Source: Rhodanobacter sp.
GTDB taxonomy: Bacteria > Pseudomonadota > Gammaproteobacteria > Xanthomonadales > Rhodanobacteraceae
Length of the DNA: 64,000 bases
Assembly: GCA_004298505.1 (NCBI GenBank)
Contig: SCRO01000075.1
Location: forward strand, 62,001 to 126,000
Direction of reading: 5' to 3'
Below, piece after piece: positions 1 to 38,068 of the stretch (positions within the stretch are counted from its first letter, which is position 1; the number at the start of each line of letters is the position of its first letter). The translations under genes and the position numbers were made by a program. Under the pieces are notes generated by a model. That model was given only the letters and a program-made list of their open reading frames with translations. It searched no databases and was not told where the DNA came from.

Positions 1-391
1 CACGCCCCTGACGGAGCTGGATGGCATCCCGCACCTGCGCCCGATACGCCCCGCGCGGGAGCGATCGGCGGCCTTGCCCTGGTAGGCGGCGCACCGGGTG
101 CGGGGTGAGGCCCTGACGTTGGAGCAAGGTGCCGGCCCACTGTCGGGAGACGTGGAGCGTTGCAGCGATCTGCGGGATGGTGAGGCCCTGCGCGTGGAGT
201 GCGGGAATGCGCTCGTCGTGGGGCGAACTCGGACCCCGGCAGACCGGGAGGGCTCGGTGCGGGGTGAGGCCTTGGCGCTTGAGCAAAGTGCGCGTCCAGC
301 CGATATCGGAGCCGAGCGCTTCCGCGATCTGCGGCGTGGTGAGGCCCTGGGCGTGGAGCTGGTGGAGGCGTGCGGGGGTTGGGGTGCTCAT
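1..391 (-). CDS. Tandem helix-turn-helix protein (C-terminus outside window)
   Basis: The protein runs off the left edge; about 130 residues are visible. Two similar units of roughly 50 residues each begin LHAQGLT, continue with PQIA and end in LxxQGLTPH, the pattern of a Hin/resolvase-type HTH. The ATG overlaps the upstream stop as ATGA, so it is translationally coupled to the gene at 388-702. Its build, repeated HTH units with a short linker, matches four other proteins in this window. DNA binding is inferred from the fold pattern; the target is unknown. Confidence 0.7.
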   Translation of the reverse strand, partial: MSTPTPARLHQLHAQGLTTPQIAEALGSDIGWTRTLLKRQGLTPHRALPVCRGPSSPHDERIPALHAQGLTIPQIAATLHVSRQWAGTLLQRQGLTPHPVRRLPGQGRRSLPRGAYRAQVRDAIQLRQGR

Positions 392-702
392 AGCCGATCC
401 TCAGGAACCTCGGATCGGTACGCCCAGTGGTAGTCGTCTGCGTTCTGCGAGACCCCGGTGGCGATTTTTATCTGGTCCCATTCCGCGGCGGTGAAGTCGT
501 GATCCCTCCCCCAAGGGGTGACCGGTGCAGGTGCCAGCGCCTGGGCGCGTTCGGCTGGTGTGAGTGTTGCAAATATCGCCAGAGCTTTCGCCTCGGCCCA
601 ACTTCCGGCCTCGCCGCGGGCTTGGGCCTCCTGCTCGTAGAACTCCTTGGGGGCGTTCACGAGAATATTGCGGACGATTTGGGCGGCGGTGTTGTTGTTC
701 AT
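388..702 (-). CDS. Hypothetical protein, 104 aa
   Basis: No family recognised. The protein is acidic and alpha-helical in character, with FYEQEAQARGEAGSWAEAKA near residue 20 and a Trp-rich C-terminal third. Its ATG is preceded by a leader ending GAGTACCGACC, the same leader type used across the element, which supports this start. It is the first gene of a two-gene operon with the tandem-HTH gene that follows. Confidence 0.65.
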   Translation of the reverse strand: MNNNTAAQIVRNILVNAPKEFYEQEAQARGEAGSWAEAKALAIFATLTPAERAQALAPAPVTPWGRDHDFTAAEWDQIKIATGVSQNADDYHWAYRSEVPEDRL

Positions 703-756
703 GGTCGGTACTCGATGCGGATAAATGCTGGCTTGGATGCAGTTTGGGAGTTTCGT

Positions 757-1170
757 TTACATAGCCCTGCGGTGCTGTATCGCTGTCTCGTCAGTCGTTG
801 TAAGGCCGGCGGACTGACGCAGAGCCACGCGCTCAGCAAGCACAAGAAGCCCCGCGTCCTGCAGGTCTTGCTCGTCGCCGATCGCCACGCCGATCGCCAA
901 AGCTTCGCTTTTCATTGCCGCCAGCGTTCGCCCGTATTTCGAGCGCGGTCCCTGGCTCGTCGCGTCAACCTCCCACCGCTCCACGACATTCCATTTGTCC
1001 GTTTTTCTCAGCCAGCTGTCGGCAGCAACAAAGTCACGCAAGCTCTCTGCCGGCACATCGATCGCTGACAGATTCACGGGTCGACCCCATTTCCCACCAG
1101 ATGCCCCGGTCTCGGTGATGACGCGGATAGTCTCGCTATTTACTAGTGTCGAAAAGATAATGTGCTTCAT
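757..1170 (-). CDS. Hypothetical protein with shared basic C-terminal tail
   Basis: A 137-residue protein with no ankyrin repeats and no recognised domain. It ends GLTTTDETAIQHRRAM, clearly related to the tails of the ankyrin proteins (for example GVTDEQEPVQRSRKM). The preceding stretch, LAERVALRQSAGL, also resembles theirs (AHRERxxLxQxxGL). So the tail is a portable module and not part of the ankyrin fold. The start is supported by the CACCACACCGAGCACCGACC leader immediately before the ATG. Confidence 0.75.
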   Translation of the reverse strand: MKHIIFSTLVNSETIRVITETGASGGKWGRPVNLSAIDVPAESLRDFVAADSWLRKTDKWNVVERWEVDATSQGPRSKYGRTLAAMKSEALAIGVAIGDEQDLQDAGLLVLAERVALRQSAGLTTTDETAIQHRRAM

Positions 1171-1204
1171 GGTCGGTGCTCGGTGTGGTGGTGTGACGTG
1201 ATCC

Positions 1205-2492: not shown

Positions 2493-3275
2493 CTACATCG
2501 TGCGATGGCGCTGCACGGGTTCCTGGTCGTCGGTCAGGCCAGCCGCTTCCCGGAGGAGGGGCCGCTCCCGGTGGGCGGCAAGGAGGCTTCGGGTTTCGCC
2601 TGAGGTCGACTCTTCGGCGGTGCGGCCTCCGATGTCCACCAGGGTTGCATCCGCTCCGGCCTGGAGGAGGTCGCGCACTGCGTCCGTGGACCCGGTCATG
2701 GCGGCGATATGCAGGACGGTTTGCCCCACGGCGCTCTGCGCGTCGAGGACGGCGCCGGCCGCCAACAGGACACCCATCAGCTCCGACGAGTATCCGTCCC
2801 CACTCCATTCAACGGCGGCCATCATGAGCGGAACCCATTGGTCGTGATCCCGGGCATTCACGTCGGCGCCTCGAGCAATCAGGAGCTTCCCGGTCCGCAC
2901 ATCCTTACAACTGCACGCATTCATCAACGGCGTACGCCCGTTGCTGTCCGGCGCATCGAATTCTGCCCCGGCGTCCAGCAGGACAACCGCAGTTTCGTGG
3001 GCACCCTCCTGGGTCGCGAAGAACAGGGCGGTCTGGTACACCGAATCCATCGCATTGACGTCGGCGCCCCGATCAATCAGGAACCGCGCCATGTCCGCCT
3101 GGTTGTTCATGGCTGCGTGGCTCAAGGCCGCGTGGCCTTCCTCGTCCGGGGCATCCACCGGAATGCCTGACTCCAGGGCGTCGCGAACGGCGTCCAGGTC
3201 CCCGCGTTGCGCGGCTTCCATCATGTCGTTGATGGCTTCGAAATCGTCGTCGTCATCGTCGTATGGGTCGGTCAT
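2493..3275 (-). CDS. Ankyrin-repeat protein with basic tail
   Basis: 260 residues. After an acidic start (seven Asp in a row near residue 5), about six ankyrin repeats fill residues 20-225, with motifs such as ALSHAAMNNQADMARFLI and RTPLMNACSCKDVRTGKLLI. The tail is GLTDDQEPVQRHRTM. It is one of six genes with a TAGGGC box, 75 nt before the ATG, and it also has a TACACT -10 hexamer and a GAGGAACCGACC leader. No signal peptide or membrane segment, so it is cytoplasmic unless the tail directs export. Confidence 0.9.
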   Translation of the reverse strand: MTDPYDDDDDDFEAINDMMEAAQRGDLDAVRDALESGIPVDAPDEEGHAALSHAAMNNQADMARFLIDRGADVNAMDSVYQTALFFATQEGAHETAVVLLDAGAEFDAPDSNGRTPLMNACSCKDVRTGKLLIARGADVNARDHDQWVPLMMAAVEWSGDGYSSELMGVLLAAGAVLDAQSAVGQTVLHIAAMTGSTDAVRDLLQAGADATLVDIGGRTAEESTSGETRSLLAAHRERPLLREAAGLTDDQEPVQRHRTM

Positions 3276-10397: not shown

Positions 10398-10426
10398 GGG
10401 CGGCCGACGGGGCGGCCCATCCACCG

Positions 10427-11158
10427 CTACATCTTCCGGTGGCGTTGGGCAGGTTCCTGCTCATCGGTGAGGCCGACGGATTGCCGCAGTACCTGTTGTT
10501 CGCGGTGGGCGGTTAGGACACCCAAAGTGTCGCCCTTCGTGAGTTGTTCGGGCCGCTTCGGCACCCCGCCGCCGTGAATGCCATAACAATCTGGCCGCCG
10601 CGCAATATTCTCAGGAGTCTGACTCTCGCGGTTGACGATGGTGTGATCCGCGCCTGCAGCCAAAAGAATCCTGGTGATGTTGCTGTTGTCCGTGTTGGCC
10701 GCGTGATGGAGCGCGGTATTCCCCCATTCATCCTTCGCGTTGAGATCCACTCCTGCGTCGACCAGGACTTGCGCGACTCCGATGGATCCTCGATCAACAG
10801 CATGCATCAACAAAGTCTTGCCGGCGGCGTCTGCATGATCCGTGGCGGCACCCGCGCCCAGCAAAAGCTCCATGGCCTCGGTCTGACCCGCTTTTGAGAC
10901 CAACGATAATGCGGTATCTCCCTTGCTGTCCTTCCTTTCGATATCCGCTCCGTGCTCCAAGAGCACGTTCATGATGTCGAGCCGCCCGTCCTCCGCGGCA
11001 TCCATCAAGGGCGTGCGTTTGCCGGTGGGGTCCGGAAAGGATCCAGTGATGAGCACCTTGTCGGGATCGCCGCCTTCGGACAGAAGACGGCGGACCCGTT
11101 CAATATCCATGAGAGGCCGGCGGACATTGATGGAGTTCGTGTCGCTCGTGGAAGTCAT
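10427..11158 (-). CDS. Ankyrin-repeat protein with basic tail
   Basis: 243 residues with five ankyrin repeats from about residue 45 (TPLMDAAEDGRLDIMNVLL, TALSLVSKAGQTEAMELLL, TLLMHAVDRGSIGVAQVLV, TALHHAANTDNSNITRILL). It ends AHREQQVLRQSVGLTDEQEPAQRHRKM in sense, the full-length form of the shared tail. Own promoter TTGCGC-N16-TAGAAT and a CACCACACCGGGAAC leader. Confidence 0.9.
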   Translation of the reverse strand: MTSTSDTNSINVRRPLMDIERVRRLLSEGGDPDKVLITGSFPDPTGKRTPLMDAAEDGRLDIMNVLLEHGADIERKDSKGDTALSLVSKAGQTEAMELLLGAGAATDHADAAGKTLLMHAVDRGSIGVAQVLVDAGVDLNAKDEWGNTALHHAANTDNSNITRILLAAGADHTIVNRESQTPENIARRPDCYGIHGGGVPKRPEQLTKGDTLGVLTAHREQQVLRQSVGLTDEQEPAQRHRKM

Positions 11159-11187
11159 TCCCTGTTCCCGGTGTGGTGGTGTCGTCC

Positions 11188-11215
11188 ATTCTAGGAACGG
11201 CGGGGCGTTGCGCAA
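11188..11215 (-). promoter_or_regulatory. Promoter of the 10427-11158 ankyrin gene
   Basis: Minus strand TTGCGC, 16 bp, TAGAAT. The 45 bp further upstream (AATGAGTGAxTCGACACCATC) are nearly identical to those before the ankyrin gene starting at 16069, so the whole control region is duplicated. Confidence 0.6.
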
Positions 11216-11293
11216 CCGATCGATGGTGTCGACTCACTCATTTCCGAGGGCCGAGGCTGTCGGGCCGCGCTTGGCCCATCAACCGCGTTGGCT

Positions 11294-12001
11294 TTACATG
11301 CTCCGACGTCGCGCGATCGGCGCGGTGAAGTCCCCCAGCAGGAGCGCCCGTTCGCGAACGACGCGCTCGGCGACCAGAACCTCCCGAGCCGCGCCCTGGG
11401 CCAGGTTCTCCGCGAAGGCGCCGGCCTTGTTGACCAGCTCCGGGTTGGCGCCGCGCGCCAGCAGCAGCCGAACCAGGTCCTCTTGACCGGTCGGACTGCA
11501 CTGCATCACCGCGTGATGGAGCGCCGTGTTCCCGTCGGGGTCCCGGGTATTCACATCCGCCTGTCGGTCGAGCAACATCGCGACCGCTCCGATGTGTTGA
11601 TTGCGGGCGGCGTTCATCAAGACGGTACTCCCGAACGCGGTTCGCGCATCCACCTGGGCGCCGTGCGCCAACAGGACCTCCATCATGGGGACGCATCCCC
11701 AGTACGCTGCCCCCATCAGCGGGGTCTGCTTATTCAGTGCGTTCGGCGCATCCACTTCAGCGCCGTACTCCAGCAGCAACAGGGTGGCCTCTCGAGAGTT
11801 GACGGCCGCATAGCTCAACGGGGTGTCCCCGACGTCGTCGGGTTGCTCCACGTCGGCGCCGTGCTCGAGGAGCAGCGTCATGATGTCGACGCGGCCCTGT
11901 CCCGCCATGTGCGACAACACGGTGCGCCCATGCTGGTCCGCTTTGTCTGGCGATCCGCCGTCCGCGAGGTGCTGCCGAACGGAGTCGAGGTCGATACGCA
12001 T
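11294..12001 (-). CDS. Ankyrin-repeat protein, last gene of a five-gene operon
   Basis: 235 residues, six ankyrin repeats (TVLSHMAGQGRVDIMTLLL onward). The tail FTAPIARRRSM is a shortened version of the shared basic end. The ATG shares a base with the upstream stop (TGATG), so translation is coupled. A GTG one codon upstream is a possible alternative start. Confidence 0.87.
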   Translation of the reverse strand: MRIDLDSVRQHLADGGSPDKADQHGRTVLSHMAGQGRVDIMTLLLEHGADVEQPDDVGDTPLSYAAVNSREATLLLLEYGAEVDAPNALNKQTPLMGAAYWGCVPMMEVLLAHGAQVDARTAFGSTVLMNAARNQHIGAVAMLLDRQADVNTRDPDGNTALHHAVMQCSPTGQEDLVRLLLARGANPELVNKAGAFAENLAQGAAREVLVAERVVRERALLLGDFTAPIARRRSM

Positions 12002-12813
12002 CACATCACCCGCCGAGCGGTGTGCCGGGGCTCCTCGGTCCGTCCCAGGATGTGCTGGTCGATCCGCGACAACTCTTCGGGGGTGCCGTCCTTCTCAAGC
12101 GGACGGAGGCCCGCCAGGTTGACGATCAGCGGGTCGGCGCCGTGCGCCAGCAACGTGTCGATAGCGTCCAGGGCGCGTTGGTCGCGGTCGAAACCAACGA
12201 GAGCGTCCATGAAGACGAAAGCACTCCAATCGGGGTCGTCGCCCTTGAGTCTGTTGACCAGGTGGAAGGACGTGTTGCCGTCGGCGTCGGTCGAGTCGAT
12301 GTCTGCACCCCGCGCGACCAACGCGTCGATGATCGGCGGCGGGTTGTCCGTGACCGCGGTGGCGTAGTGGATGGCTTGGTAGCCGATGCTCGATCGGGCG
12401 TTCACGTCGGCGCCGGCGTCCAGGAGAGCATTCACGGAGTCGGGTTGCCCGCACACAACAGCCCAATGCAGGGCATTCACGTCGCCGAGTGCGATGTCGC
12501 TGACATCCAACTCATGCAACTCGTGGATATCGGCCCCGCGGCTCGCCAGGAAGGCGATAGCTTGGGGATGGCCTGCCTCGATGGCGATGTGCAGAGGTTG
12601 GCGCCCACCGAGGTCCGCATCGCGCAGGTCCGCCCGGTGGTCCAGTAAGGCCTCCATGGTGGGGATCTGCTCCGCGCGGGCGGCCTGGTGCAACGCCGTT
12701 TCGCCGTCCTTGTTCCGTGTGCCAACGTCGACCCCTTTCCGAAGCAACTCCTCGAGCAGCGTGACGTTGCCGGTGCGGGCGGCGTGGAACAGCTTCTCGT
12801 TCTTGGTTCTCAC
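12001..12813 (-). CDS. Ankyrin-repeat protein with alternative tail
   Basis: 270 residues from the GTG overlapping the upstream stop (GTGA). Seven ankyrin repeats, starting KLFHAARTGNVTLLEELL. One is unusually long, around residues 170-215, with an insertion between the two helices. It ends DQHILGRTEEPRHTARRVM, a variant of the basic tail. An in-frame GTG 33 nt upstream would overlap the previous gene more and is less likely. Confidence 0.85.
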   Translation of the reverse strand: MRTKNEKLFHAARTGNVTLLEELLRKGVDVGTRNKDGETALHQAARAEQIPTMEALLDHRADLRDADLGGRQPLHIAIEAGHPQAIAFLASRGADIHELHELDVSDIALGDVNALHWAVVCGQPDSVNALLDAGADVNARSSIGYQAIHYATAVTDNPPPIIDALVARGADIDSTDADGNTSFHLVNRLKGDDPDWSAFVFMDALVGFDRDQRALDAIDTLLAHGADPLIVNLAGLRPLEKDGTPEELSRIDQHILGRTEEPRHTARRVM

Positions 12814-12998
12814 GGGTTCGGCCACCAGGGCTTGCCATGGACCCACTCAAACAGACCCTCGCGCACGAACTCGCGCTGGGTGGGCGTGCGGATCAGGGAG
12901 GTTTCCGGCTCCAGCCCAGCCCATCGGCGCAGGCCGGCCCGCACGTGGGTGCGCTGTGCAACGGCGATCGTGTTGTTGGTGTTGTCGTTCTCGTTCAT
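12810..12998 (-). CDS. Small hypothetical protein, 62 aa
   Basis: Asn-rich start (MNENDNTNN), then a basic stretch and a Trp-rich end (FEWVHGKPWWPNP). It lies between two ankyrin genes with 4-nt overlaps on both sides, which argues that it is translated. Function unknown. Confidence 0.55.
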   Translation of the reverse strand: MNENDNTNNTIAVAQRTHVRAGLRRWAGLEPETSLIRTPTQREFVREGLFEWVHGKPWWPNP

Positions 12999-13990: not shown

Positions 13991-14713
13991 TCATGGCGTG
14001 ACTCCCTTATTCGATACAGACTGCCTGTTGGACACACCCGCTCTGCTGGTGACGCTGCAGACCAGGCTGAGGGTGATCCCGAACTCCGTCGCCAGATCCT
14101 TGAGCGGGACTCCTTTCTGATAGCGCGTCACAATCCGCTGGTTGCGTGCAGCGACCTCCGGGTCCCTTGGCTTACCCCGGGTTTTGGTCAAGCCGGCGGC
14201 ACGGATCACAGTGGTGACCAGGCCGATGGAGACGCCGAATTCCGTCGCCAGCTCCTTGATCCGGGTGCCGTCCTGATAGCGCGCCACAATCCGCTGGTTG
14301 CGTGCAGCGACCTCCAGGTCCGCTTGCCTACGCCGGGTTTTGGTCACGCCGGCGGCGCTGTTCACAGTGGTAACCAAGCTGCGGGAGATGCCGAATTCCG
14401 TCGCCAGCTCCTTGACAGGGACGCCTTCTTGGTAGCGGGCCACAATCCGCTTGTTGCGCTCAGCAACCTTCGGGTCCCTTGGCTTACCCCGGGTTTTGGT
14501 CAAGCCGGCGGCACGGATCACGATGGTGACCAGGCTGATGGAGACTCCGAATTCCGTCGCGAGATCCTTGATCGGCGTGCCGTCCTGGTAGCGCGCCACA
14601 ATCCGCTGGTTGCGTGCAGCGACCTTCGGGTCCCGGCGCAAATTCTGGCCCTGGGATTCGCCGGCGGAACTGACCCCGGTGTTGTTGGTGGAGCGTGGTT
14701 TGTCGCGGTTCAT
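13991..14713 (-). CDS. Four-unit tandem helix-turn-helix protein
   Basis: 240 residues. After a 27-residue start come four consecutive 52-residue units (residues 28-79, 80-131, 132-183 and 184-235), each beginning D-x-x-VAxRNxRIV, then RYQxG, LATEFG and a second helix with SLV. This is a Hin/resolvase-like HTH. The scaffold is nearly identical between units, while residues in and around the predicted recognition helix differ (VSISLVTIV, ISRSLVTTV, VSIGLVTTV, ITLSLVCSV). No catalytic domain. Probably a multi-site DNA-binding protein. Confidence 0.85.
   Translation of the reverse strand: MNRDKPRSTNNTGVSSAGESQGQNLRRDPKVAARNQRIVARYQDGTPIKDLATEFGVSISLVTIVIRAAGLTKTRGKPRDPKVAERNKRIVARYQEGVPVKELATEFGISRSLVTTVNSAAGVTKTRRRQADLEVAARNQRIVARYQDGTRIKELATEFGVSIGLVTTVIRAAGLTKTRGKPRDPEVAARNQRIVTRYQKGVPLKDLATEFGITLSLVCSVTSRAGVSNRQSVSNKGVTP
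14009..14632. repeat. Four in-frame 156-bp tandem repeats
   Basis: Exactly 4 x 156 bp, encoding the four HTH units. Long stretches such as ATCCGCTGGTTGCGTGCAGC recur in most units, so the array can expand or contract by recombination. Confidence 0.85.
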
Positions 14714-14741
14714 GGCCGGTGCTCGGTGTGTTGGTGTGTTC

Positions 14742-15034: not shown

Positions 15035-16069
15035 TCACATCTTCCGGCTGCGCTGCACGGGTTCCTGTTCGTCGGTGACGCCAGCAACTTGACTGAGCAT
15101 CGCCCGCTCGCGGTGAGCGACCAGAACGGTTTTGGCCTCACCCTCGGCAATGTCTTCGGGGGTTCCGCCGCGTCGGTTGACGATCGTTGTGTCGGCGCCG
15201 TGCGCGAGTAGGGTTCGAACGACGTCTGCGGCGTGGCCGCGCGCCCCAAAATGCAGAGCGGTGTCGCCACCCATGTCTTGAGCGTCTACAGGCTCTCCCT
15301 GGCTAACCAGTAAAGCCACGGCCGGGGCTGATCCGCTCTCTGCAGCCATCATGAGCGCGGTTTGCCCGACCGAATCCGAGCCCCCTACCTGGGCGCCCTT
15401 GTCGATGAGCATCTTCAAGGATTCAACCCCACCAACACCGGCGGCCACCATGAGCGCTGTTTGGCTAGTGCCATCTTCCGCGTTCACATCAGCGCCCCGA
15501 TCGAGCAGGATTTGCACCACCATGGGGTGATTGGCGGCGGCCACTATAAGCGGGGTGCCTCCAAGCCCGTTGGCCTCATCGATGTCCGCGCCTGCGTCCA
15601 GGAGAATGTTTACAGCCGAACCATCACCATCATTGGCCGCCCACCACAAAGCGGTTTCCCCGTCTTCGTTCGCCAGGCTCACATCGGCGCCCCGTTCCAC
15701 AAGCACCTTCACGGCGTCGTTTCCATTTCCGGTAAAGGACCTCATCAAGGCCGTATTGCCATTGTTGTCTTGCGCATCAATCTGGGCGCCGCGGTCCAGG
15801 AGGAGACGGACCGAGTCGATCTGTCCTTGGTCGGCCGCGTACATCAATGCGGTGGTTCCGTAGGTGCCGCCCAGCTCGGCGGATATCTCGGTATCGGCAC
15901 CATGATCCAACAAGAGATTCATCGCGTCGTTGCGCCCCAGGTAGGCGGCGTGGATCAGTGCCGTGGTTCCGTCCTCATTGCGTTCATTCACATCCCGGCC
16001 CGCGTCCAACAACCGCTTGAGTCCATCGTCATCGTTGGTATTGACGCTCGCGATCAGGTCGGTGTGCAT
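15035..16069 (-). CDS. Long ankyrin-repeat protein with basic tail
   Basis: 344 residues, nine to ten ankyrin repeats filling residues 8-310 (TALIHAAYLGRNDAMNLLL, TALMYAADQGQIDSVRLLL and so on). Tail AHRERAMLSQVAGVTDEQEPVQRSRKM in sense. Own promoter TTGCGC-N16-TACACT. The start is set by the CACCACACCGGGAACGTACAAC leader next to the ATG. Confidence 0.92.
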   Translation of the reverse strand: MHTDLIASVNTNDDDGLKRLLDAGRDVNERNEDGTTALIHAAYLGRNDAMNLLLDHGADTEISAELGGTYGTTALMYAADQGQIDSVRLLLDRGAQIDAQDNNGNTALMRSFTGNGNDAVKVLVERGADVSLANEDGETALWWAANDGDGSAVNILLDAGADIDEANGLGGTPLIVAAANHPMVVQILLDRGADVNAEDGTSQTALMVAAGVGGVESLKMLIDKGAQVGGSDSVGQTALMMAAESGSAPAVALLVSQGEPVDAQDMGGDTALHFGARGHAADVVRTLLAHGADTTIVNRRGGTPEDIAEGEAKTVLVAHRERAMLSQVAGVTDEQEPVQRSRKM

Positions 16070-16100
16070 GTTGTACGTTCCCGGTGTGGTGGTGGTTATC

Positions 16101-16128
16101 AGTGTAGGAACAGCAGGACGCCGCGCAA
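16101..16128 (-). promoter_or_regulatory. Promoter of the 15035-16069 ankyrin gene
   Basis: Minus strand TTGCGC, 16 bp, TACACT; -10 about 32 nt before the ATG. Confidence 0.6.
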
Positions 16129-16251
16129 CCGGCCGATGGTGTCGATTCACTCATTTCGAGAGACGGTTGATGAGAGAGGAAGGCGGCTGGTGGATGCCTC
16201 GCTACGCGCCTGGACCCGAAAGGAGCCCGCTCTTGATCCATTCACCCGCGC

Positions 16252-16818
16252 TCACATCATGCGGCGCCGCGGCGCCTGCACCTCGACTGCCGGCTCCCGC
16301 TGCGCGGCGTGGTCCAGGAAGGCCTTCTCGATCTCGGATCGACGCGCTCCTTCGTGGTTGGTGATGTAGTCCTGGGCCGAGGCACCCCGCCGGTTGACCA
16401 GGGAGGTGTCGGCACCGCGATCGAGGAGAGCCTTCACCGCCTCGGGCGCGCCGGCGTGCACGGCTTCCATGAGCGGCGTAACGCCCGAGCGATCCTGATG
16501 ATTCACGTTGGCCCCAGCATCCACCAGCACGCGAACCGCCTCGGGTTGGTTCTGGGAGGCCGCGGTGGACAGCGGGGTGAAGCCTTTCCGGGTTTCTGCG
16601 TGAACATCCCCACCGTGCGCAATCAGATCCTTCAAGATGGTGGCGTCGGCCCGGCCGGCCGCATGGTGGACCAGGGTGGTGCCGTAATCGCTGGTCGTCT
16701 GGTTCGGCGGCGCGCCGCTTTCGAGGAGCGCGTGCGCTGCATCGGGCGCTTGCTGTTGGACCGCTTGGGCGAGCGGGGTGGGGCCGTCGGTGCGGCGAGC
16801 GCTGTCGTTGGTGGTCAT
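16252..16818 (-). CDS. Ankyrin-repeat protein coupled to a four-HTH gene
   Basis: 188 residues, four to five repeats (TPLAQAVQQQAPDAAHALL to TPLMEAVHAGAPEAVKALL). It ends VQAPRRRMM, a variant basic tail. The ATG overlaps the stop of the HTH gene (ATGA), so an HTH-array protein and an ankyrin protein are made from one message. Confidence 0.87.
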   Translation of the reverse strand: MTTNDSARRTDGPTPLAQAVQQQAPDAAHALLESGAPPNQTTSDYGTTLVHHAAGRADATILKDLIAHGGDVHAETRKGFTPLSTAASQNQPEAVRVLVDAGANVNHQDRSGVTPLMEAVHAGAPEAVKALLDRGADTSLVNRRGASAQDYITNHEGARRSEIEKAFLDHAAQREPAVEVQAPRRRMM

Positions 16819-17435
16819 GGGGTGGCTCCCGTGTGGTGGTGGTGCTCCCGCCGGTTGACCACCCCAGCGCGACTGATCACGGAGTAGACCAGGCGGATGG
16901 AGACGCCGAATTCAGCCGCCAGACACTTGTACGAGACGCCCTCTTGGTAGCGCGCGACAATCCGCGAATCTCTTAGCTCACGCCGGCCCCGGGCGCCGCG
17001 CGCCTTGCTGATCACGTTGCTGACCAGGCTGATGGTGATGCCAAACTCCGTCGCCAAATCCTTGTACGGGACGCCTTCCAGGTAGCGTGCAACAATCCGC
17101 TGGTTGCGTGCAGTGAGTCTCATTTGGCGGCCCTGGGCGATACCCGCCTTGTTGACCACGGCGCCGACGATGGCTCGGGTGACCGCGAGCTCGTGCATGA
17201 TTTGGGCAATGGGGGCGTCGTCCTGATACATCCGAATTATGGTGTCGTCGCGTTCGACCAGGACGGGATTGCGCCGGTAGCGATCGATCGTTGCCGGCAT
17301 CACGCGGGCGGCGGGGAGGCCCATGTCCTGCCGGATTTGCCGGACGCGCTGTGGGCTCAACCCATGCCGCCGGGCGATCGACGAGTTGGAATAACCTTTG
17401 AGGATGGCTCGGGCGATGTGCTTGTCGCGGTGCAT
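16815..17435 (-). CDS. Four-unit tandem helix-turn-helix protein (diverged)
   Basis: 206 residues with four HTH units at about 3-45, 57-100, 105-150 and 153-198. Units 3 and 4 match the units of the 13991-14713 protein (RNQRIVARYLEGVPYKDLA, ARYQEGVSYKCLAAEFG), while units 1 and 2 are distant (SSIARRHGLSPQRVRQIR; IMHELAVTRAIVGAVV). Ends in His-rich HHHHTGATP. A near-ideal promoter, TTGACA-N15-TAAGGT, lies at 17464-17490. Confidence 0.83.
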   Translation of the reverse strand: MHRDKHIARAILKGYSNSSIARRHGLSPQRVRQIRQDMGLPAARVMPATIDRYRRNPVLVERDDTIIRMYQDDAPIAQIMHELAVTRAIVGAVVNKAGIAQGRQMRLTARNQRIVARYLEGVPYKDLATEFGITISLVSNVISKARGARGRRELRDSRIVARYQEGVSYKCLAAEFGVSIRLVYSVISRAGVVNRREHHHHTGATP

Positions 17436-17463
17436 GGTCGGTGCTCGGTGTGGTGGTGTATTC

Positions 17464-17516: not shown

Positions 17517-17732
17517 TCAGGACGTGGCTTCTGCGCGTCGAGCCCAGGCTTGCTTGCTGCGCTCCCACCCTTGGTCTCGGTTTGCTCGGGGTGGGTTGGC
17601 TGGAATGCGGTACACCTGATCCTTCTCGTCATGTTCCTCGCCGGCCAGCTCACGTTCTATGTCGGAATAAGCAACGCCCGCCCGAAGCCCCGCCCGGAAG
17701 GTCGCATTGAGCCATTCATTGCGGGACGTCAT
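17517..17732 (-). CDS. Small hypothetical protein, 71 aa
   Basis: Charged protein with many Arg, Glu and Trp residues and no family recognised. Overlaps the stop of the two-HTH gene as ATGA and closes the six-gene operon that starts at 19272. Confidence 0.55.
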   Translation of the reverse strand: MTSRNEWLNATFRAGLRAGVAYSDIERELAGEEHDEKDQVYRIPANPPRANRDQGWERSKQAWARRAEATS

Positions 17733-19596: not shown

Positions 19597-19598
19597 AC

Positions 19599-20765: not shown

Positions 20766-20784
20766 GGTCGTCGTTTTTGCCCTA
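20766..20784 (-). promoter_or_regulatory. TAGGGC box, copy 4
   Basis: Minus strand TAGGGCAAAAACGACGACC followed by TGACC; 77 nt before the ATG at 20707. CTGACC and TACCGT 17 bp apart could be the -35 and -10. Confidence 0.75.
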
Positions 20785-22308
20785 TGCGCTTGCAAACGGA
20801 TCGGACCAATCGACAGGACCGGCAATCTCCGGGATGGGGTCGAGCGGCGGGTCGCCTTCCCGGCGGTCGTCGCCCAAAGCGATCCGGTGCAGCGGGATCA
20901 TGGTGCGCTTGCCGTTGGCCGTGACTCCCGACTCGTGCCGCGCGGGCTCCTTGGCGCCGGCGCATTCCCCGGCGGCCCAGAAGGCGCGCCAGAACACCGG
21001 TTCGGAGAGCGGCTCGTGCTCCGGATGGTTGTGGGCCCATTCCTCGAACGCCTCGATGATCTCGCGGCGGGAGTGGAGCACGCCGGCGCTCCGGCCAATG
21101 CGTTCGCTGTCGATCCAGTCGGCCACCGGATTGCTCGCGCCGCGGATCTCCCGCGCCCAGCGCCGCACCGGAGCCGGCCACTGGTTTTCGGGGCGGAACC
21201 GGCCCTTGTAATCGCGGACAATCCGCTGCACGCCGGCGAGCAGCCAGTCGAGGACGATGTGCACTTCGTGTGCAAAGATCTCGTCAACCAGCCGGTGGTT
21301 GCGTTGATCACTGGGCACCGTGTGGGACCAACGCACCGGCGCGATGCGCCGTTGGACCGCTCCGGTCGGATCGGTGATCCACGGGTCCAGGTTCGAGCAA
21401 ATGATCCACTTGCCGTCGCTGGTGTAGGAAATGACCGGCCGACCCTTGCGGTCGATCTGCACCTCGTCCCCGCCGGTGAGCTGCTTGAAGATGCCTTCGG
21501 CCCACTTGCCGCGCTCGACCTCGGTGCAGACGACCAGTGACGCGCCGATGATCTTCTCGAGCCGGAAGCCGTCGAGGTTCTTGAGATCGAGCGCGACTGC
21601 ACGGTAATGGAAGCGGCGGATGATGGCGGCCAGCGTGGACTTGCCCGAACCCTTCGCGCCGTACCACCAGGCCGCCATCTGGGGCTGGCCGGGGATCAGG
21701 GTCAGCGCCGCTTGCTCCTGAATGAAGTCCCGCAGCTCCGGGTCGGGCTGGGCGTGCGCCAAGAACCGGCCGAACCGGGAGTCCGCGGGCACCGGGGTGG
21801 GGATGTACTCCGCTCCCAGGCACACGCCCGGGGCCGAGGCATCGACCAGGTAGCGGATGCCGGCGCTGCGCTCATGCATCTCGGCCATGATGCGGCCGTC
21901 GGATCCGACACGCAGGTATGCATTGCGGGTGGGGATCACCACGTCTGCATCGCGGTTGGGGGTGGGCACGGGCGGCGCGGATGCAGCAATCAGCTTGCTG
22001 AAGGCCCACGCGTTGCGCGCCCCGCCCGTGGTGGCCTTCTCCACATAGTGGTCGCGCAACCACGCGGCGGCCTGGCGCTCGCCGACCAGGTCGGGCACCG
22101 CCTGCCAATGCGTGCCGGCCCAGGAGTACATGACATCCTCGTCCGGATCGAGCGCGTAGCGCTCTGCACCCGGCACCAGGGCGGCCGATGCAAACGAGTC
22201 GTCGGGCGTTGCAGCCAGATGGGGCGTGACCACGGGAACCAGGGTTGGATAAGCCAGGATGGTGGCGCTGGGCCCCGGGCCAGCAATAGGGTTCTGGGAG
22301 GTGGGCAT
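20782..22308 (-). CDS. SF3 helicase / D5-like replication protein
   Basis: 508 residues. Walker A GAKGSGKST at 217-225, a sensor-1 CSN at 304-306 and the arginine pair QRR about 320 place it in the superfamily-3 helicases of plasmids and phages (P4/D5 type). The DSRFGRFLAHAQPDPE stretch before the ATPase and the VFWRAFW motif near the end are shared with the second helicase at 38065. The N-terminal 200 residues show no clear primase motif. Probably the replication initiator or helicase of the element. Confidence 0.85.
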   Translation of the reverse strand: MPTSQNPIAGPGPSATILAYPTLVPVVTPHLAATPDDSFASAALVPGAERYALDPDEDVMYSWAGTHWQAVPDLVGERQAAAWLRDHYVEKATTGGARNAWAFSKLIAASAPPVPTPNRDADVVIPTRNAYLRVGSDGRIMAEMHERSAGIRYLVDASAPGVCLGAEYIPTPVPADSRFGRFLAHAQPDPELRDFIQEQAALTLIPGQPQMAAWWYGAKGSGKSTLAAIIRRFHYRAVALDLKNLDGFRLEKIIGASLVVCTEVERGKWAEGIFKQLTGGDEVQIDRKGRPVISYTSDGKWIICSNLDPWITDPTGAVQRRIAPVRWSHTVPSDQRNHRLVDEIFAHEVHIVLDWLLAGVQRIVRDYKGRFRPENQWPAPVRRWAREIRGASNPVADWIDSERIGRSAGVLHSRREIIEAFEEWAHNHPEHEPLSEPVFWRAFWAAGECAGAKEPARHESGVTANGKRTMIPLHRIALGDDRREGDPPLDPIPEIAGPVDWSDPFASA

Positions 22309-24242: not shown

Positions 24243-24384
24243 ATGACATGAAAAGAAACGCTTGTACTTCTGCACTTCGATTGATTTTCCGCACGCTGGA
24301 ACTGATTCACCTCGCGGCTTGGCTGTTTGAGTTGGCTCATGGGCTCTACCTCCACGGACCGTTCGTCTTCTAACGGCTCCGGTA

Positions 24385-33862: not shown

Positions 33863-34780
33863 CTACATGCGCCGGCTGCGCTGCACCGGCTCCTCGGTGT
33901 CGTTGAGGCCCACCACCTGGCGGAGGATGCCCCGCTCGCGCTCGACGCGTTCCGTTATCAGGATGTCCTTGGCTTTTCCCTTAGCGACGTATTCCGCCGT
34001 CTCCCCGCGCCGATTGACCAGAGTGGGGTCGGCTCCCGCGGCCAGGAGTACCGGGATGGATTCGGTGTCGTCTTTGACTGCGGCACACATCAAGGCGGTG
34101 TTACCTTCGCAGCTCTGGGCGTCCACCTGAGCGCCCCCGGCCAGAAGCACCCGGATGGATTTGGTGTCGTCTCGTTCCGCGGCATCCAGAAAATCGTCCG
34201 TTGCGAATTCTTCTTTGAGCACTGCATAGTGCAGCGCCGTCAACCCATAATTAGTCTGGGCGTCCACCTGAGCGCCGGCGTCCAATAGCACTTGGATGGA
34301 TTCGGTGTCGTCTCGTTCCGCGGCCCGATGAAGAGCCGTCATCCCGTCAACCGTGTCCCGGGCGTCCACCAGGGCGCCACCCTCACACAACATCTTTTTG
34401 ATGGCGGGAACAGTCGTAATCATGAGGGGCGTTATCCCATAGCGATCGCACGCCTCCAGATCGGCACCGCCTTCGATCAGGGCCTTCACCGCATCATCGT
34501 GCGCATACAGGGCTGCATCGAGCAGCGAATATTCCATTTTGGCCAGTTCGGGAGCAAGGTCGTCCGAATTGTTGATCGGGCGGGAATAGTCGTCGTCCGT
34601 GACGAACCAGAAGGGGGATGCATCGGCCGGAAGATCCTTCTTCGAGTCGCCCTCCTCAACCCAATCGGCCCAACTTTCCTTGGTCATCACCCACACACCA
34701 TCCCGGATTTCGACAGTTCCGAATGATTCGGCTTCCTTGAGCAGTGCCTCGGCAATGCGTTGGTTGGTGGTGGTGTCCAT
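33863..34780 (-). CDS. Ankyrin-repeat protein with basic tail
   Basis: 305 residues. An N-terminal domain of about 95 residues (DGVWVMTKESWADWVEEGDS) is followed by six ankyrin repeats. Two successive repeats share ERDDTxSIxVLL, a recent internal duplication. Tail VVGLNDTEEPVQRSRRM. Starts at the ATG right after the CACCACACCGGACACCACA leader. Confidence 0.9.
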   Translation of the reverse strand: MDTTTNQRIAEALLKEAESFGTVEIRDGVWVMTKESWADWVEEGDSKKDLPADASPFWFVTDDDYSRPINNSDDLAPELAKMEYSLLDAALYAHDDAVKALIEGGADLEACDRYGITPLMITTVPAIKKMLCEGGALVDARDTVDGMTALHRAAERDDTESIQVLLDAGAQVDAQTNYGLTALHYAVLKEEFATDDFLDAAERDDTKSIRVLLAGGAQVDAQSCEGNTALMCAAVKDDTESIPVLLAAGADPTLVNRRGETAEYVAKGKAKDILITERVERERGILRQVVGLNDTEEPVQRSRRM

Positions 34781-34820
34781 TGTGGTGTCCGGTGTGGTGG
34801 GGATGTTCATATAAGGCCGC

Positions 34821-35648
34821 TCACATGCGCCGGCTGCGCTGGATGGGTTCGTGCTCGTCGGTGAGGGCAACGTGGTCGCGAAGTGCATGGCGATCGCGCT
34901 CGGCGCGGGCCGCGGAAACGAGCTCCTTGATCTCCGGATTCTTCGTGTACTCATCAGCGAATCGGCCTTTGCGATCGACGATGTCCGGATTGGCACCGGC
35001 CGCCAGGAGCCGATCGACTACTTTGGCATTTCGGCTACCCCAACCGTCTGCTACTGCAAAATCCGCGCGCCCCGCCGCCACCATCAGCGCGGTTTCGCCA
35101 TCGCGGTCTTGCAGATTGGGCTCCGCTCCAGCCGCCAGGAGCAGATCCATCATTTCGGTATTTCCGACCTCTGCTGCTACCGAAAGGACTGGCGCGCCAC
35201 TTTCGCTTTGCAAGTTTGGGTCGGCGCCCGCGGCCAGCAGGAGTTTGATCTTTTCCACGTCCGCTCTACCTACCGCGTCCAACAGGGGAGTCCACTCTTC
35301 GTTGAGATTTGGATCGGCGCCCGCGGCCAGCAGGAGTTTTGTCTGGTCCGCGCATGCCATAACCAGCGCCGTGTACCCAGATTGCCCTTGCAGATTTGGA
35401 TCGGCGCCTGCGTCTAGGAGGTTTTTGAGCTTGTCCGTATCGTTGTCACTTGCGGCCTCTATCAGCGCCGTGGTCCCATATTTGTTTTGCAGGTTGGGAT
35501 CCGCGCCGGCCGCCAGGAGAACTTTGGCCTGGTCCGCATTCGCCCCGAACAGCGGCGTGATGCCCAACTCGTCGCGCTCGTTGGGGTCCGCTCCGGCCGC
35601 CAGGAGTTGCTTGGTTTCTTCGATGTCGGCTGTGAACAGATTGGGCAT
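34821..35648 (-). CDS. Ankyrin-repeat protein built of LLAAGADPN repeats
   Basis: 275 residues with eight to nine unusually regular repeats, each with LLAAGADPNLQ. Several repeats are shortened to a single helix pair of about 25 residues (ADQAKVLLAAGADPN, ADQTKLLLAAGADPN). Tail HVALTDEHEPIQRSRRM. Recent expansion of the array is likely from the uniform sequence. Confidence 0.9.
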   Translation of the reverse strand: MPNLFTADIEETKQLLAAGADPNERDELGITPLFGANADQAKVLLAAGADPNLQNKYGTTALIEAASDNDTDKLKNLLDAGADPNLQGQSGYTALVMACADQTKLLLAAGADPNLNEEWTPLLDAVGRADVEKIKLLLAAGADPNLQSESGAPVLSVAAEVGNTEMMDLLLAAGAEPNLQDRDGETALMVAAGRADFAVADGWGSRNAKVVDRLLAAGANPDIVDRKGRFADEYTKNPEIKELVSAARAERDRHALRDHVALTDEHEPIQRSRRM

Positions 35649-35670
35649 GATCGGACCCTCGTGTGGTTGG

Positions 35671-37749
35671 TTAGACACGCCGCCGGCGCGCCGCCTTCTG
35701 ACTCTCCCGCGCGCCCTCGACCAGGTCGATCTTCTCGACCGCCTGGTCGGCGTTGCGCCGGAGGGTGGGGGATTTCACGTGGTCGCCGTACGCCTGGGCC
35801 AGATCCTTGGCGGTTTCGCCCTTGCTGTTGACCAGGGAGGTGTCCGCGCCGGATTTGAGCAGGGCGCCTACTGCACGGTCTTGGCCGCGCTCAGCTGCAA
35901 GGTGGAGCGCCGTCTGCCCATTATTGTCCTTCTTGTTCAAGATCTTGTCGTCGGCGCGCTTGGCCAGGGTTTCGACCACGATCGCCTGCTCGGAGCGGCC
36001 CTTGTCCGTGCGCGGGTTTTGCGCGGCGGCGGTGTGGAGCGGGGTGTGGCCCTGTTTGTCGGTGATGCCCAGGTCCGCACCGCGGTCCAGCAGTTTGGTG
36101 GCGAGGCGCACGTCCTTGCGCTCGGCGGCCAGGTGCAGCGCCGCACGTCCATCGGGGTCCTGGGTGTTCACGTCTCCGCGCAGCGCCTGGGTGATCAGGC
36201 CGTGGTCCTCGTCGCGGTCGCGGACGGAGTCGGCGGTGCGGCGCAGTTGGGAAATATCGAGCGGAGTGAGCGGAGGCGCGGTCGCCACCTGCCGGTCCTC
36301 GCCCGATCCCAGCTCGTTAGCCGTCATGCGCAGCTCGCGCGCTTGGGTGGTGTTCTTGAACGCCTTGTCCTGGGAGAGCTCTTGCAGGTAGGGCGCGGCC
36401 GCCTTCAAGGTGTCCCGGGTTTCGGGGTAGTGCTCGGCCAGGCCGTTCACCGCTGCAATCGCGAGGGGCACGATGATGTCCCGCGCGCCGCGTTCGCCCA
36501 TCTTGTCGATCGCCCGCGACCAGTCCTGCTGGGAGAGATCCCGGATCGCACCGACCACGCGTTCGGCGTGGGTCTGCGGGGCGATGTTGTCCAGGTGCGT
36601 GCCCGGTGTGGTGGTGCCTGATCCGACGGCCACGTGGCGGGCCGCGAGGACCGCGTCGCCGACGCCCTGGGTGATCTGGATGTGCGAGTCGTTCAGCTGC
36701 GCGTAGAGCGCCAGGGAGTTGATGCGCGCCACGGCCTGCGGGTTGTCGGTGACCTGCAGCGCCTTGGCGCGGGAGTCCGATAGGATCGCGGGGGCGTAGT
36801 AGGAGACGGATTTCAGGTGGTCGCCTTCCTCAAAAGGCGGCACACCGACCTCGATGCCGGTCAACACGCCGGAGACGTGCCGGGTCAGCTGGTCGCCTTG
36901 CTTGCGGGAGTCTTCGCCCGACGACGCAAAGGCCATGTGCCATGCATGCGGATCGTTGCGATCGCGGATAACCGCATCGATGCGCGACCCGGTTTCGGTC
37001 TGGCCTTTGCCGTCCAGGGAGAAGGTCGAGGTGCCGGACTCGAACGCCACCGGGACCACCCGTTGGCTGTCGGTGCAGTCGACTTTCTTGACCGCCATCG
37101 GCACGAACAGCTCGCCCCAGCGCTGGTCCAGCGCATTCTTGATGTCGACGGCCTCGGCCTTGTCGCCGGCGCGCATTTGGGAGAAGACCTCGCGGAGGTT
37201 CTGGGCAGCGGGACCGCGCTCCTCGCGGGCTGAGCCCAAGTCGGCCTCCGCCCAGCCGGATCGGATGTAGAGGTCCAGGCGCCCCATCGCCTCGGCCTTG
37301 ACGGTCTTCGAGAGCCCGGAGTCATGGCTGTGGATCCAGTCCAGGAAGGGCGCGTACTCGCCGTCCAGGTCCCCCTTGGGGCCGACGTGGTGCATCAGGT
37401 CCGTGCGGGTCTTGGGATCGGCCAGGTATTGGTCATGCACCTCGGACAGGCGCTGCGTGGTCGCCTCGCGCACGGGGACCGCCGCCACCGCCTGGGCGCC
37501 TTTCTTCAGGACCTCGTCGCGGTCTTCAAACGTGCGCGCGATCAAATCCGCGCCGGCGACGGGGAGGCCCACGTCGTCGGTCAGCGCCTTGCGGAAGGCC
37601 TTGCGGTCCTTGTACTTCCCATGCAGATCATCAAGCTGCCGGGCCGCGGCCCAGGCCAAGGCTTGCGCTTTCTCGTCGTCGATCTCCACGCGTCGGAACT
37701 GGCGGGAGGACTCCGCCACAAGGGCGCGGGCTTTGGTGAGATCGGACAT
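35671..37749 (-). CDS. Large protein with C-terminal ankyrin domain
   Basis: 692 residues. The first 500 have no recognised domain, are soluble and contain a beta-rich middle (VVPVAFESGTSTFSLDGKG). Ankyrin repeats occupy about 545-665 (AALHLAAERKDVRLATKLL, TPLHTAAAQNPRTDKGRSEQ, TALHLAAERGQDRAVGALL). Ends ARESQKAARRRRV, basic like the shared tail but not the same. The largest ankyrin protein here; effector or toxin are possibilities without direct evidence. Confidence 0.83.
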   Translation of the reverse strand: MSDLTKARALVAESSRQFRRVEIDDEKAQALAWAAARQLDDLHGKYKDRKAFRKALTDDVGLPVAGADLIARTFEDRDEVLKKGAQAVAAVPVREATTQRLSEVHDQYLADPKTRTDLMHHVGPKGDLDGEYAPFLDWIHSHDSGLSKTVKAEAMGRLDLYIRSGWAEADLGSAREERGPAAQNLREVFSQMRAGDKAEAVDIKNALDQRWGELFVPMAVKKVDCTDSQRVVPVAFESGTSTFSLDGKGQTETGSRIDAVIRDRNDPHAWHMAFASSGEDSRKQGDQLTRHVSGVLTGIEVGVPPFEEGDHLKSVSYYAPAILSDSRAKALQVTDNPQAVARINSLALYAQLNDSHIQITQGVGDAVLAARHVAVGSGTTTPGTHLDNIAPQTHAERVVGAIRDLSQQDWSRAIDKMGERGARDIIVPLAIAAVNGLAEHYPETRDTLKAAAPYLQELSQDKAFKNTTQARELRMTANELGSGEDRQVATAPPLTPLDISQLRRTADSVRDRDEDHGLITQALRGDVNTQDPDGRAALHLAAERKDVRLATKLLDRGADLGITDKQGHTPLHTAAAQNPRTDKGRSEQAIVVETLAKRADDKILNKKDNNGQTALHLAAERGQDRAVGALLKSGADTSLVNSKGETAKDLAQAYGDHVKSPTLRRNADQAVEKIDLVEGARESQKAARRRRV

Positions 37750-37780
37750 GGATGGTTCCCGGTGTGGTGTGCTGTCCACC

Positions 37781-38068
37781 CTATGCAAGTTTTCCGGTTT
37801 GTCCTGGGCCGATGTTGGCTTTTGTGAGGCGCCTCAAATCCTTGTAGACGACCTCGTGGGAGACGCCCTGGCTTTGGGCGATCTCCGCGGTGGTGAAGCC
37901 GGCCCGGTGCAGCTCCTGGATGCGCCGTCGGCGTTCGGTCAGCTGCAGGCGCGGGTTGGTCAGTCCTTGAGCCCGCAGACGTCGGGTGATGGTGGACGGG
38001 TGGACGCCCAGCCGAGCGGCGATCTCGCTGTTGCGCAGGCCCTGGGCGACCCAATGTTGGAGATTCAT
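37781..38068 (-). CDS. Two-unit helix-turn-helix protein coupled to an SF3 helicase
   Basis: 95 residues with two HTH units (LRNSEIAARLGVHPSTITRR at 11-30; FTTAEIAQSQGVSHEVVYKD at 57-76), both with QGL-type linkers like the left-edge protein. Its ATG overlaps the helicase stop as ATGA, so helicase and DNA-binding protein are made together, suggesting a replication or loading role. Confidence 0.82.
   Translation of the reverse strand: MNLQHWVAQGLRNSEIAARLGVHPSTITRRLRAQGLTNPRLQLTERRRRIQELHRAGFTTAEIAQSQGVSHEVVYKDLRRLTKANIGPGQTGKLA

What the first reader, a model, noticed from the sequence alone, without database searches (positions are those of the whole stretch)
1..38068. A family of tandem helix-turn-helix array proteins
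Five proteins (1-391, 13991-14713, 16815-17435, 17729-18019, 37781-38068) consist of two to four consecutive Hin-like HTH units and little else. In the 240-residue member the units are exactly 52 residues with an almost constant scaffold, while recognition-helix residues vary. This is a modular DNA-reading layout, and the 156-bp DNA repeats allow unit number to change by recombination. Two members are coupled to an ankyrin protein or an SF3 helicase. I know of no named family with this build.
Basis: partly seen in the sequence, partly recalled or inferred. Interest (0 to 1): 0.85.

Follow-up and report, generated by a model that had tools for sequence, protein, structure and literature searches.

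The report
Tandem DNA-binding arrays on mobile element
A large mobile DNA element in a bacterium carries several small proteins built from two to four copies of the same DNA-gripping unit, probably to recognise long DNA sites and control the element's own genes; related elements carry similar proteins, and a comparable build is already known from archaea.

Summary
Five minus-strand genes encode proteins of 2-4 consecutive helix-turn-helix (HTH) units. Array A has four exact 52-residue units (156-bp DNA repeats). A matches it (60 bits) far below its cut-off (140), and five other tandem arrays score 21-69 bits, so the likeness is one of layout, not membership.

New context: all five lie in a 92-kb integrative conjugative element (ICE) beside mutS, bounded by 25-bp repeats. 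Eight genomes with a related relaxase were searched whole: four have array hits, and all seven hits lie within 60 kb of the relaxase. One four-unit array is 40% identical between a Xanthomonadales and a Thauera genome. Arrays A, B and several ankyrin genes share a 16-bp leader just before ATG; it occurs 30 times in the ICE, on one strand only.

Most likely these are sequence-specific regulators of ICE genes; no target is shown. New variant of a known kind.

The parts
13991..14713 (-). Array A: 240 aa, four exact 52-residue HTH units (14635-14480, 14479-14324, 14323-14168, 14167-14012)
16815..17435 (-). Array B: 206 aa, four HTH units; units 3-4 resemble A, units 1-2 divergent; ATGA overlap with ankyrin gene 16252-16818
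17729..18019 (-). Array C: 96 aa, two HTH units; ATGA overlap with ORF 18016-18465 (no Pfam match)
37781..38068 (-). Array D: 95 aa, two HTH units, between an SF3 primase-helicase gene (ATGA overlap) and a 692-705 aa ankyrin gene
2..391 (-). Array E: N-terminal 130 aa (two HTH units; weaker third beyond the window; full gene C2:61825-62391); ATGA overlap with ORF 388-702 (no Pfam match)
38065..39687 (-). SF3/D5-type primase-helicase (P4-family primase C-terminal domain, over cut-off), upstream of array D
20782..22308 (-). second SF3/D5-type primase-helicase of the ICE (same model, below cut-off; DUF5906 above cut-off)
15035..16150 (-). ankyrin-repeat protein next to array A, own start-associated leader (ATG 16069)
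16252..16818 (-). ankyrin-repeat protein translationally coupled to array B
35671..37788 (-). ankyrin-repeat protein downstream of array D (leader 37755, ATG 37749)
10427..12846 (-). three further ankyrin-repeat genes (10427-11215, 11294-12004, 12001-12846)
33863..35678 (-). two further ankyrin-repeat genes (33863-34996, 34821-35678)
2493..3275 (-). ankyrin-repeat gene near array E
14719..14734 (-). start-associated leader of array A (CCAACACACCGAGCAC, 5 nt before ATG)
17441..17456 (-). start-associated leader of array B (CCACCACACCGAGCAC, 5 nt before ATG)
43343..43367 (+). right repeat of the ICE (25 bp, identical to C2:12997-13021); ICE taken as C2:12997-105367, i.e. the window up to 43367

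Best explanation
The five proteins are tandem homeodomain-like HTH DNA-binding regulators encoded by a 92-kb integrative conjugative element (MobF/TrwC relaxase, TrwB-type coupling protein, ArdC, two SF3 primase-helicases) inserted beside mutS. Shown: the HTH units, their tandem layout and number, their location in the element, ATGA coupling of B, C, D and E to neighbouring genes, and the recurrence of multi-HTH proteins near related relaxases. Inferred: each unit puts its recognition helix in a major groove, so two to four units on flexible linkers follow one another along a long, asymmetric site, as the three HTHs of Cbp1 do along a CRISPR repeat. The most likely job is sequence-specific transcriptional control of the element's own genes (maintenance or transfer, autoregulation), with array length and recognition helices diversified by unit duplication and replacement. 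The ankyrin partners may tune activity through protein contacts; that is speculation.
For: Fold: AlphaFold2 of A gives four three-helix units at pLDDT 84-93 (means of ten residues), linkers 54-66, pTM 0.32, i.e. beads on a string; B likewise at 74-87. Layout match to Cbp1: NF040595 60 bits, E 2.3e-16 for A; PDB 2lvs, a CRISPR repeat binding protein, by profile E 5.7e-6 and Foldseek rank 1, prob 0.99, E 0.032. Cbp1's HTHs lie 5'-3' along the repeat (PMC10883916, passages). Context: 25-bp repeats and a same-genus genome without the insertion; relaxase, coupling protein, ArdC. Association: of 298 other genomes of the phylum one (G036) has an array hit at E<=1e-8, 18 kb from a related relaxase (at most ten candidates per genome were scored there); in eight relaxase genomes searched whole, four have hits and 7 of 7 hits lie within 60 kb of a relaxase. 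The G036 and Thauera four-unit arrays are 40% identical over 200 columns. Shared control: A, B and ankyrin genes carry the 16-bp start-associated leader. Diversification.
Against: No DNA target is shown. AF2 used an alignment of only five sequences, and the relative arrangement of units is undetermined. The Cbp1 match is not specific: A's best NCBIfam hit is another family, CD3324 (NF040785, 78.8 bits, over its cut-off of 65, summed over three stretches), and other tandem arrays score 21-69 bits on the Cbp1 model. Foldseek's E-value for 2lvs is weak, and no PDB match reaches E 0.001. The linker varies more than the recognition helix, so relaxed constraint could explain part of the variation. 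Four of the eight relaxase genomes have no array hit (G130, G232, G295, G299); by the more sensitive unit model 3 of 9 sister regions have none (G056, only 18 kb; G232; G299), and the ORF in G295 reads to me like a transposase-type HTH. The search with A alone also hit G219 and G262 weakly, which are not among the 11 relaxase genomes. The 60-kb limit was set after seeing the hits.
Confidence: 0.55

Rival explanations
1. Replication or DNA-processing factors: the arrays bind an origin or transfer site of the ICE and load or regulate the SF3 primase-helicase.
For: D is coupled to an SF3 helicase gene by ATGA. Elsewhere in the ICE a 693-bp gap of 46.8% GC (ICE 63.9%) full of direct and inverted repeats (six copies of TTGTAAAAAATGTCCCG at <=3 mismatches) lies between ORFs with weaker HTH matches (C2:47861-48553).
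Against: Only D of the five lies beside a helicase gene; no array was found next to the second SF3 gene. The repeat is absent from the window (0 matches at <=3 mismatches). B is coupled to an ankyrin gene, C and E to ORFs without Pfam match.
Confidence: 0.15
2. DNA-coating or chromatin-like proteins that silence or protect the element (like Cbp1-Cren7 chromatin, or, from recall, D5 of phage T5), rather than classical regulators.
For: PHROG 'transcriptional regulator, D5-like' phrog_323 matches A, B, C and D; Cbp1 is a chromatin partner (passages).
Against: A count of repeated 11-mers found no comparably strong dispersed repeat in the array-bearing sister regions G036, G228, G256 and G268 (at most four copies); 2-4 units with divergent recognition helices fit discrete sites better (inference).
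Confidence: 0.12
3. HTH/ankyrin pairs are toxin-antitoxin or immunity modules, the array being the DNA-binding repressor of a two-gene module.
For: Small coupled genes, many paralogous ankyrin genes.
Against: PADLOC gives A and B only weak matches (C, D and E were not scanned); the coupled partners are ankyrin, SF3 or unknown ORFs, and none of the four matched a toxin model in Pfam.
Confidence: 0.08
4. Leftover DNA-binding parts of transposases, resolvases or homing endonucleases, without a present function.
For: Models of IS21, IS630 and resolvases match single units; the BcepSauron endonuclease carries a similar tandem HTH tail.
Against: Intact ORFs with coding-type third-position GC for A, B, D and E (C was not picked there); A and B have their own leader; scaffold pN/pS 0.42 fits purifying selection; a four-unit array is conserved between G036 and Thauera.
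Confidence: 0.06

Closest known systems
Cbp1 / Cbp2, CRISPR DNA repeat-binding proteins of archaea (NCBIfam NF040595; PDB 2lvs, which I take to be Cbp2)
   Same: Small proteins of two or three tandem HTHs on short linkers, derived by domain duplication (PMC10883916 passages); among the best matches by three methods
   Different: 60 bits against the cut-off of 140; bacterial ICE instead of archaeal chromosome; up to four units; no link to a CRISPR array was examined; the match is shared by other tandem arrays
Tandem-HTH proteins of Streptomyces plasmids (WP_329204013.1, WP_329204021.1) and Bacillus phage BSP12; PHROG 1303, 664 and 323 (D5-like)
   Same: Two to about five HTH units at about 50-residue spacing and little else (two of the five in WP_329204021.1 score weakly)
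   Different: 24-33% identity in the search hits, other hosts and contexts; named only 'helix-turn-helix' or 'hypothetical' in the records seen
Homing endonuclease of Burkholderia phage BcepSauron
   Same: C-terminal row of four HTH units; Foldseek rank 1 among viral models
   Different: Carries a nuclease domain (TIGR01453 group I intron endonuclease); no such domain appears among the Pfam matches shown for the ICE arrays
CD3324 family protein (NCBIfam NF040785)
   Same: Best NCBIfam score of A, 78.8 bits, over the cut-off of 65
   Different: 82-position model of which A's best stretch covers positions 45-80 only; A reaches the score by summing three stretches; B and C are below the cut-off
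Start-associated sequences (SAS/ESAS) of Cluster K mycobacteriophages
   Same: Short, asymmetric repeat, mostly in one orientation, typically 3-7 bp before the start codon of many genes of one mobile element (PMC3203893 passages)
   Different: Different sequence; in the ICE 17 of 30 copies are not within 15 nt of an ATG ORF of 60 aa; no relatedness implied

Membership tests
Cbp1 (NF040595) | Score above the curated cut-off of 140 bits | tested here: not met
   A 60.0, B 30.6, C 19.0, D 18.0 bits; E not listed; no match over cut-off in the whole genome
Cbp1 (NF040595) | Tandem homeodomain-like HTH units and little else | tested here: met
Cbp1 (NF040595) | Match more specific than other tandem HTH arrays give | tested here: not met
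   Five control arrays give 68.7, 57.4, 49.1, 30.1 and 21.0 bits
Cbp1 (NF040595) | Binds CRISPR repeats | not testable with these tools
   needs a binding assay
CD3324 family (NF040785) | Score above the cut-off of 65 bits with coverage of the model | tested here: inconclusive
   A 78.8 bits but by three partial stretches; B 53.4, C 20.5 bits, D and E not listed
Integrative conjugative element (the carrier) | Relaxase and type IV coupling protein | tested here: met
   TrwC relaxase PF08751 E 4.1e-51; TrwB_AAD_bind PF10412 E 3.6e-43
Integrative conjugative element (the carrier) | Flanking direct repeats and a relative without the insertion | tested here: met
   25-bp perfect repeat; in G013 the right flank joins the mutS side directly. 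G013 shows only a half-site by eye, and C2:105262-105446 around the right repeat also resembles G013:C6:12108-12292, so the right end is exact only to about 0.1 kb
Integrative conjugative element (the carrier) | Integrase | tested here: inconclusive
   735-aa ORF beside the left repeat has no Pfam match; 34-53% identical ORFs in G256, G295, G130; tyrosine-recombinase-like C-terminus by my reading only
Integrative conjugative element (the carrier) | Complete type IV secretion apparatus | not tested
   VirB-like genes were not searched for; transfer ability is unknown
Start-associated sequence (SAS-like) | Repeated asymmetric sequence a fixed few bases before the start codon, in one orientation | tested here: met
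   30 minus, 0 plus copies at <=2 mismatches in the ICE; 13 of 30 have an ATG ORF of >=60 aa within 15 nt (9.1% of random positions), 12 of these 13 at 4-7 nt, 8 at exactly 5

The most novel reading that the evidence does not exclude
The arrays are element-encoded, Cbp1-like readers of the ICE's own dispersed, one-orientation 16-bp repeat: arrays A and B bind the start-associated leader of their own genes, of the ankyrin genes and of other ICE genes, so that one modular multi-HTH protein governs an element-wide regulon, and reader and repeat co-diversify by swapping HTH units. Close relatives of A and B, and this sequence as a many-copy repeat, were both found only in this element among the genomes searched.
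Probability: 0.12. Interest if true: 0.75.

Novelty: new variant of a known kind. Interest (0 to 1): 0.5.

Why it matters
Proteins made only of repeated HTH units are a natural counterpart of modular DNA readers, yet the one described family met here is archaeal and bound to CRISPR repeats. Here such arrays recur near one type of conjugative relaxase in bacteria, with near-identical units that differ at DNA-facing positions and with a candidate element-wide target repeat. That makes 'is there a natural, extendable HTH code?' directly testable with DAP-seq of five small proteins.

Tried and rejected
Searches that led nowhere. Viral contigs with array A: 2 weak loci, L004 (a long ORF whose end has two weak units) and L005 (one unit). 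SF3 helicase in viral contigs: none; UmuC: no relative; RecA: 390 general relatives, not followed. Genome contigs with array alignment A1: 75 pattern matches, no relative. Plasmid megablast: for 40000-63990 only 6% coverage around the mercury reductase gene in the rows shown, nothing for 1-24900. PDB search with A alone: none. Literature searches for tandem/multiple HTH wording (listings) gave, besides the Cbp1 paper, papers I did not open; one search was made for Cbp1; (ICE with ankyrin, mutS or MobF wording) gave four unrelated-looking titles or none; one search gave the SAS paper. 'Not in print' is claimed for nothing beyond these searches.

Ideas weighed and rejected. (1) Membership in Cbp1: rejected by cut-off and by the control. 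(2) That the 16-bp leader is the general target of such arrays: array-bearing sister regions show no comparably strong repeat, so it is kept only as the novel case. (3) A first ICE extent up to recA (111 kb): corrected to 92.4 kb; the shuffle control and the random-position control were run on the 111-kb region. Three of its 33 motif copies lie right of the ICE, and one of the 16 exact genome matches (C2:123099) has a counterpart in G013. (4) I first took the gene before recA for lexA; it is CinA-like.
Full report
1. Observation. All five coordinates hold minus-strand genes. A is 240 aa with four consecutive 52-residue units starting at residue 27. The underlying 156-bp repeats were found by two programs; Tandem Repeats Finder scores the 312-bp period (892) above 156 (798), which fits duplication of a unit pair. 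Units 1 and 3 are the closest pair (90% DNA identity over 44 codons, others 76-80%). B has four units, C and D two, E two plus a weaker third outside the window. Pfam HTH_23 matches all five above its cut-off; other resolvase-, homeodomain- and sigma-like HTH models match several. AlphaFold2 on a five-sequence alignment gives A twelve helices in four trihelical units with pLDDT 84-93 and weak linkers (pTM 0.32), and B four units with pLDDT 74-87. The placement of units relative to each other is therefore not predicted.

2. Variation. Among A's four units, 9 of 12 codons of the turn and recognition helix (unit positions 31-42) differ in amino acid, against 10 of 28 in positions 3-30 (Fisher p=0.038); pN/pS is 0.91 against 0.42. 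Positions 35, 36 and 39, which I take as core-facing, differ only synonymously. The linker (45-52) is the most variable part (2.16). This fits purifying selection on the scaffold with freer change at DNA-facing positions; it does not prove selection for new specificities.

3. Where it sits. The window is bases 62001-126000 of a 173-kb contig. A 25-bp perfect direct repeat lies at C2:12997-13021 and C2:105343-105367 (window 43343-43367). In same-genus genome G013 the sequence that follows the right repeat in our contig (105437-105753) joins the mutS side (10359-12905) almost directly, so the 92.4 kb between is an insertion (mutS confirmed). A complication: C2:105262-105446, which includes the right repeat, also resembles G013:C6:12108-12292 near recA (81%), so the right end is uncertain by about 0.1 kb. 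The element carries a TrwC/MobF relaxase, a TrwB-type coupling protein, a weakly TraG/D-like protein, an ArdC protein, two SF3/D5-type primase-helicases, UmuC and UmuD-like genes and at least ten ankyrin genes. The ORF beside the left repeat is called integrase only from ORFs in sister regions and my reading; Pfam is silent. Host: G056's 18,122-bp contig has the same length as NZ_LLXT01000001.1 of Stenotrophomonas geniculata, so I infer the order Xanthomonadales; the genus is not established.

4. Operon coupling. Stop/start overlaps ATGA join B to ankyrin gene 16252-16818, the SF3 helicase gene to D, ORF 18016-18465 to C and ORF 388-702 to E. A and B have their own leader (section 7).

5. Distribution. 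A itself: 1 of 60 genomes, the own; 3 of 299 in the order, the own and two weak hits in G219 and G262. With the five-array profile at E<=1e-8: 2 of 299 genomes of the phylum, the own and G036; at most nine or ten candidates per genome were scored, so the counts are lower bounds. The relaxase finds 11 of 299 order genomes including the own at E<=1e-60. I fetched regions around nine of the ten others (G271 and the second relaxase places of G130 and G299 were left). By the unit model at E<=0.01, ORFs with two or more HTH stretches occur in six (G036, G130, G228, G256, G268, G295) and not in three (G056, G232, G299). These genomes without G056 (eight), and six genomes of the 80 loci, were then searched whole with the profile: 11 hits at E<=1e-3 in 7 of 14 genomes. 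In the eight G genomes four have hits (G036, G228, G256, G268), and 7 of 7 hits lie 9.9-59 kb from a relaxase (about 3.7% of the bases lie within 60 kb, a limit set afterwards). G709's hit was not returned by the unit model at E<=1e-3, and G711's has one clear unit only. That these relatives are ICEs is inferred from the relaxase. The four-HTH proteins of Thauera and G036 are 40% identical over 200 columns. In G036 and G256 the array lies 2-4 kb behind an ArdC-like gene. The own ICE has further ORFs with weaker HTH matches: C2:47116-47613 (three stretches), 48557-49192 (three weak), 47540-47896 (one clear) and, beside ArdC, 19446-21020 (two weak).

6. Known relatives. In NCBIfam A's best hit is the CD3324 family (78.8 bits, over its cut-off of 65, by three partial stretches), followed by Cbp1 (60 bits, E 2.3e-16; cut-off 140), the only family in that list that I know to be multi-HTH. 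The PDB profile search gives 2lvs second, after an entry named CAP REPEAT. Foldseek ranks 2lvs, 'CRISPR repeat binding protein', first (prob 0.99, E 0.032, TM 0.37 by target; no match at E<=0.001). That 2lvs is Cbp2 is my inference. The Cbp1 paper (PMC10883916, passages) describes three HTHs from domain duplication lying 5'-3' along the CRISPR repeat, and Cbp2 with two. As control I scanned five other tandem-HTH proteins, one of them from G036: 68.7, 57.4, 49.1, 30.1 and 21.0 bits. So the resemblance is one of layout. Tandem HTH proteins occur also in Streptomyces plasmids, Bacillus phage BSP12 and a Burkholderia phage endonuclease, and 29 viral models match A's fold at E<=0.001, most without a functional name.

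7. A one-orientation repeat. CCACCACACCGRGMAC (<=2 mismatches) occurs 30 times on the minus and never on the plus strand of the ICE, 18 of them in the window; 15 copies match the inner 15-mer exactly. At <=3 mismatches it is 50 minus and 3 plus. In the 111-kb region first used there were 33 copies against a shuffle mean of 0.6, maximum 3 in 30 shuffles. Of 397 other order genomes 56 have an exact copy, none more than two. Of the 30 copies 13 have an ATG ORF of >=60 aa within 15 nt (9.1% of random positions), 12 of them at 4-7 nt and 8 at exactly 5: arrays A and B, an HTH gene (C2:47824) and several ankyrin genes among them. Upstream stands a -10-like TAnnnT by my reading. Some other copies lie in inverted repeats between genes, again by my reading. 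The pattern resembles the start-associated sequences of Cluster K mycobacteriophages (PMC3203893, passages), whose function that paper calls unknown. Most ICE genes run in the same direction as the repeat, which alone could explain much of the strand bias. Array-bearing sister regions show no equally strong repeat, which speaks against a general array-repeat pairing.

8. Mechanism and verdict. Shown: predicted fold, layout, coupling, ICE location, recurrence near related relaxases. Inferred: sequence-specific binding of long sites by successive HTHs and control of ICE genes. New variant of a known kind.

Noticed in passing
window 1176, 7149, 8479, 11164, 13591, 13795, 14719, 14908, 16077, 17441, 19380, 27835, 28302, 31695, 34785, 36599, 37755, 43160 (minus strand): Copies of a 16-bp one-orientation repeat CCACCACACCGRGMAC, many of them a few nt before an ATG; 30 in the ICE at <=2 mismatches on one strand, none on the other.
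   Followed up: partly
contig C2:47861-48553 (L015:7861-8553, outside the window): AT-rich 693-bp gap with six copies of TTGTAAAAAATGTCCCG in both orientations and many ATCAGGAGGAT-type repeats, between ORFs with HTH matches; candidate origin or operator region.
   Followed up: partly
window 43343-43367, 43593, 61519: The att-like GACGTCCAAGTNCCGTCCAAGT occurs at the ICE end and at two more places to the right; the stretch around the ICE end also resembles the region near recA in G013. A second island or an older insertion site is possible.
   Followed up: no
window 46207-50766 and 53439-55223: Right of the ICE: a 1519-aa helicase with MTES_1575 nuclease domain (PADLOC PDC-S37) and a GajA-like ATPase; likely defence genes.
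   Followed up: no
window 25129-27141: OLD/AriA-like ATPase in the ICE.
   Followed up: no
window 39784-42690: Usher-like and PapD-like chaperone genes inside the ICE upstream of the SF3 helicase and array D.
   Followed up: no
window 22795-24981: UmuC and UmuD-like genes, 52-71% identical to pairs in the sister regions G228, G268, G295 and G299.
   Followed up: no
window 57179-60942: A stretch with a mercury reductase gene stands between two segments that are adjacent in same-genus G013, i.e. a separate insertion between the ICE and cinA-recA.
   Followed up: partly
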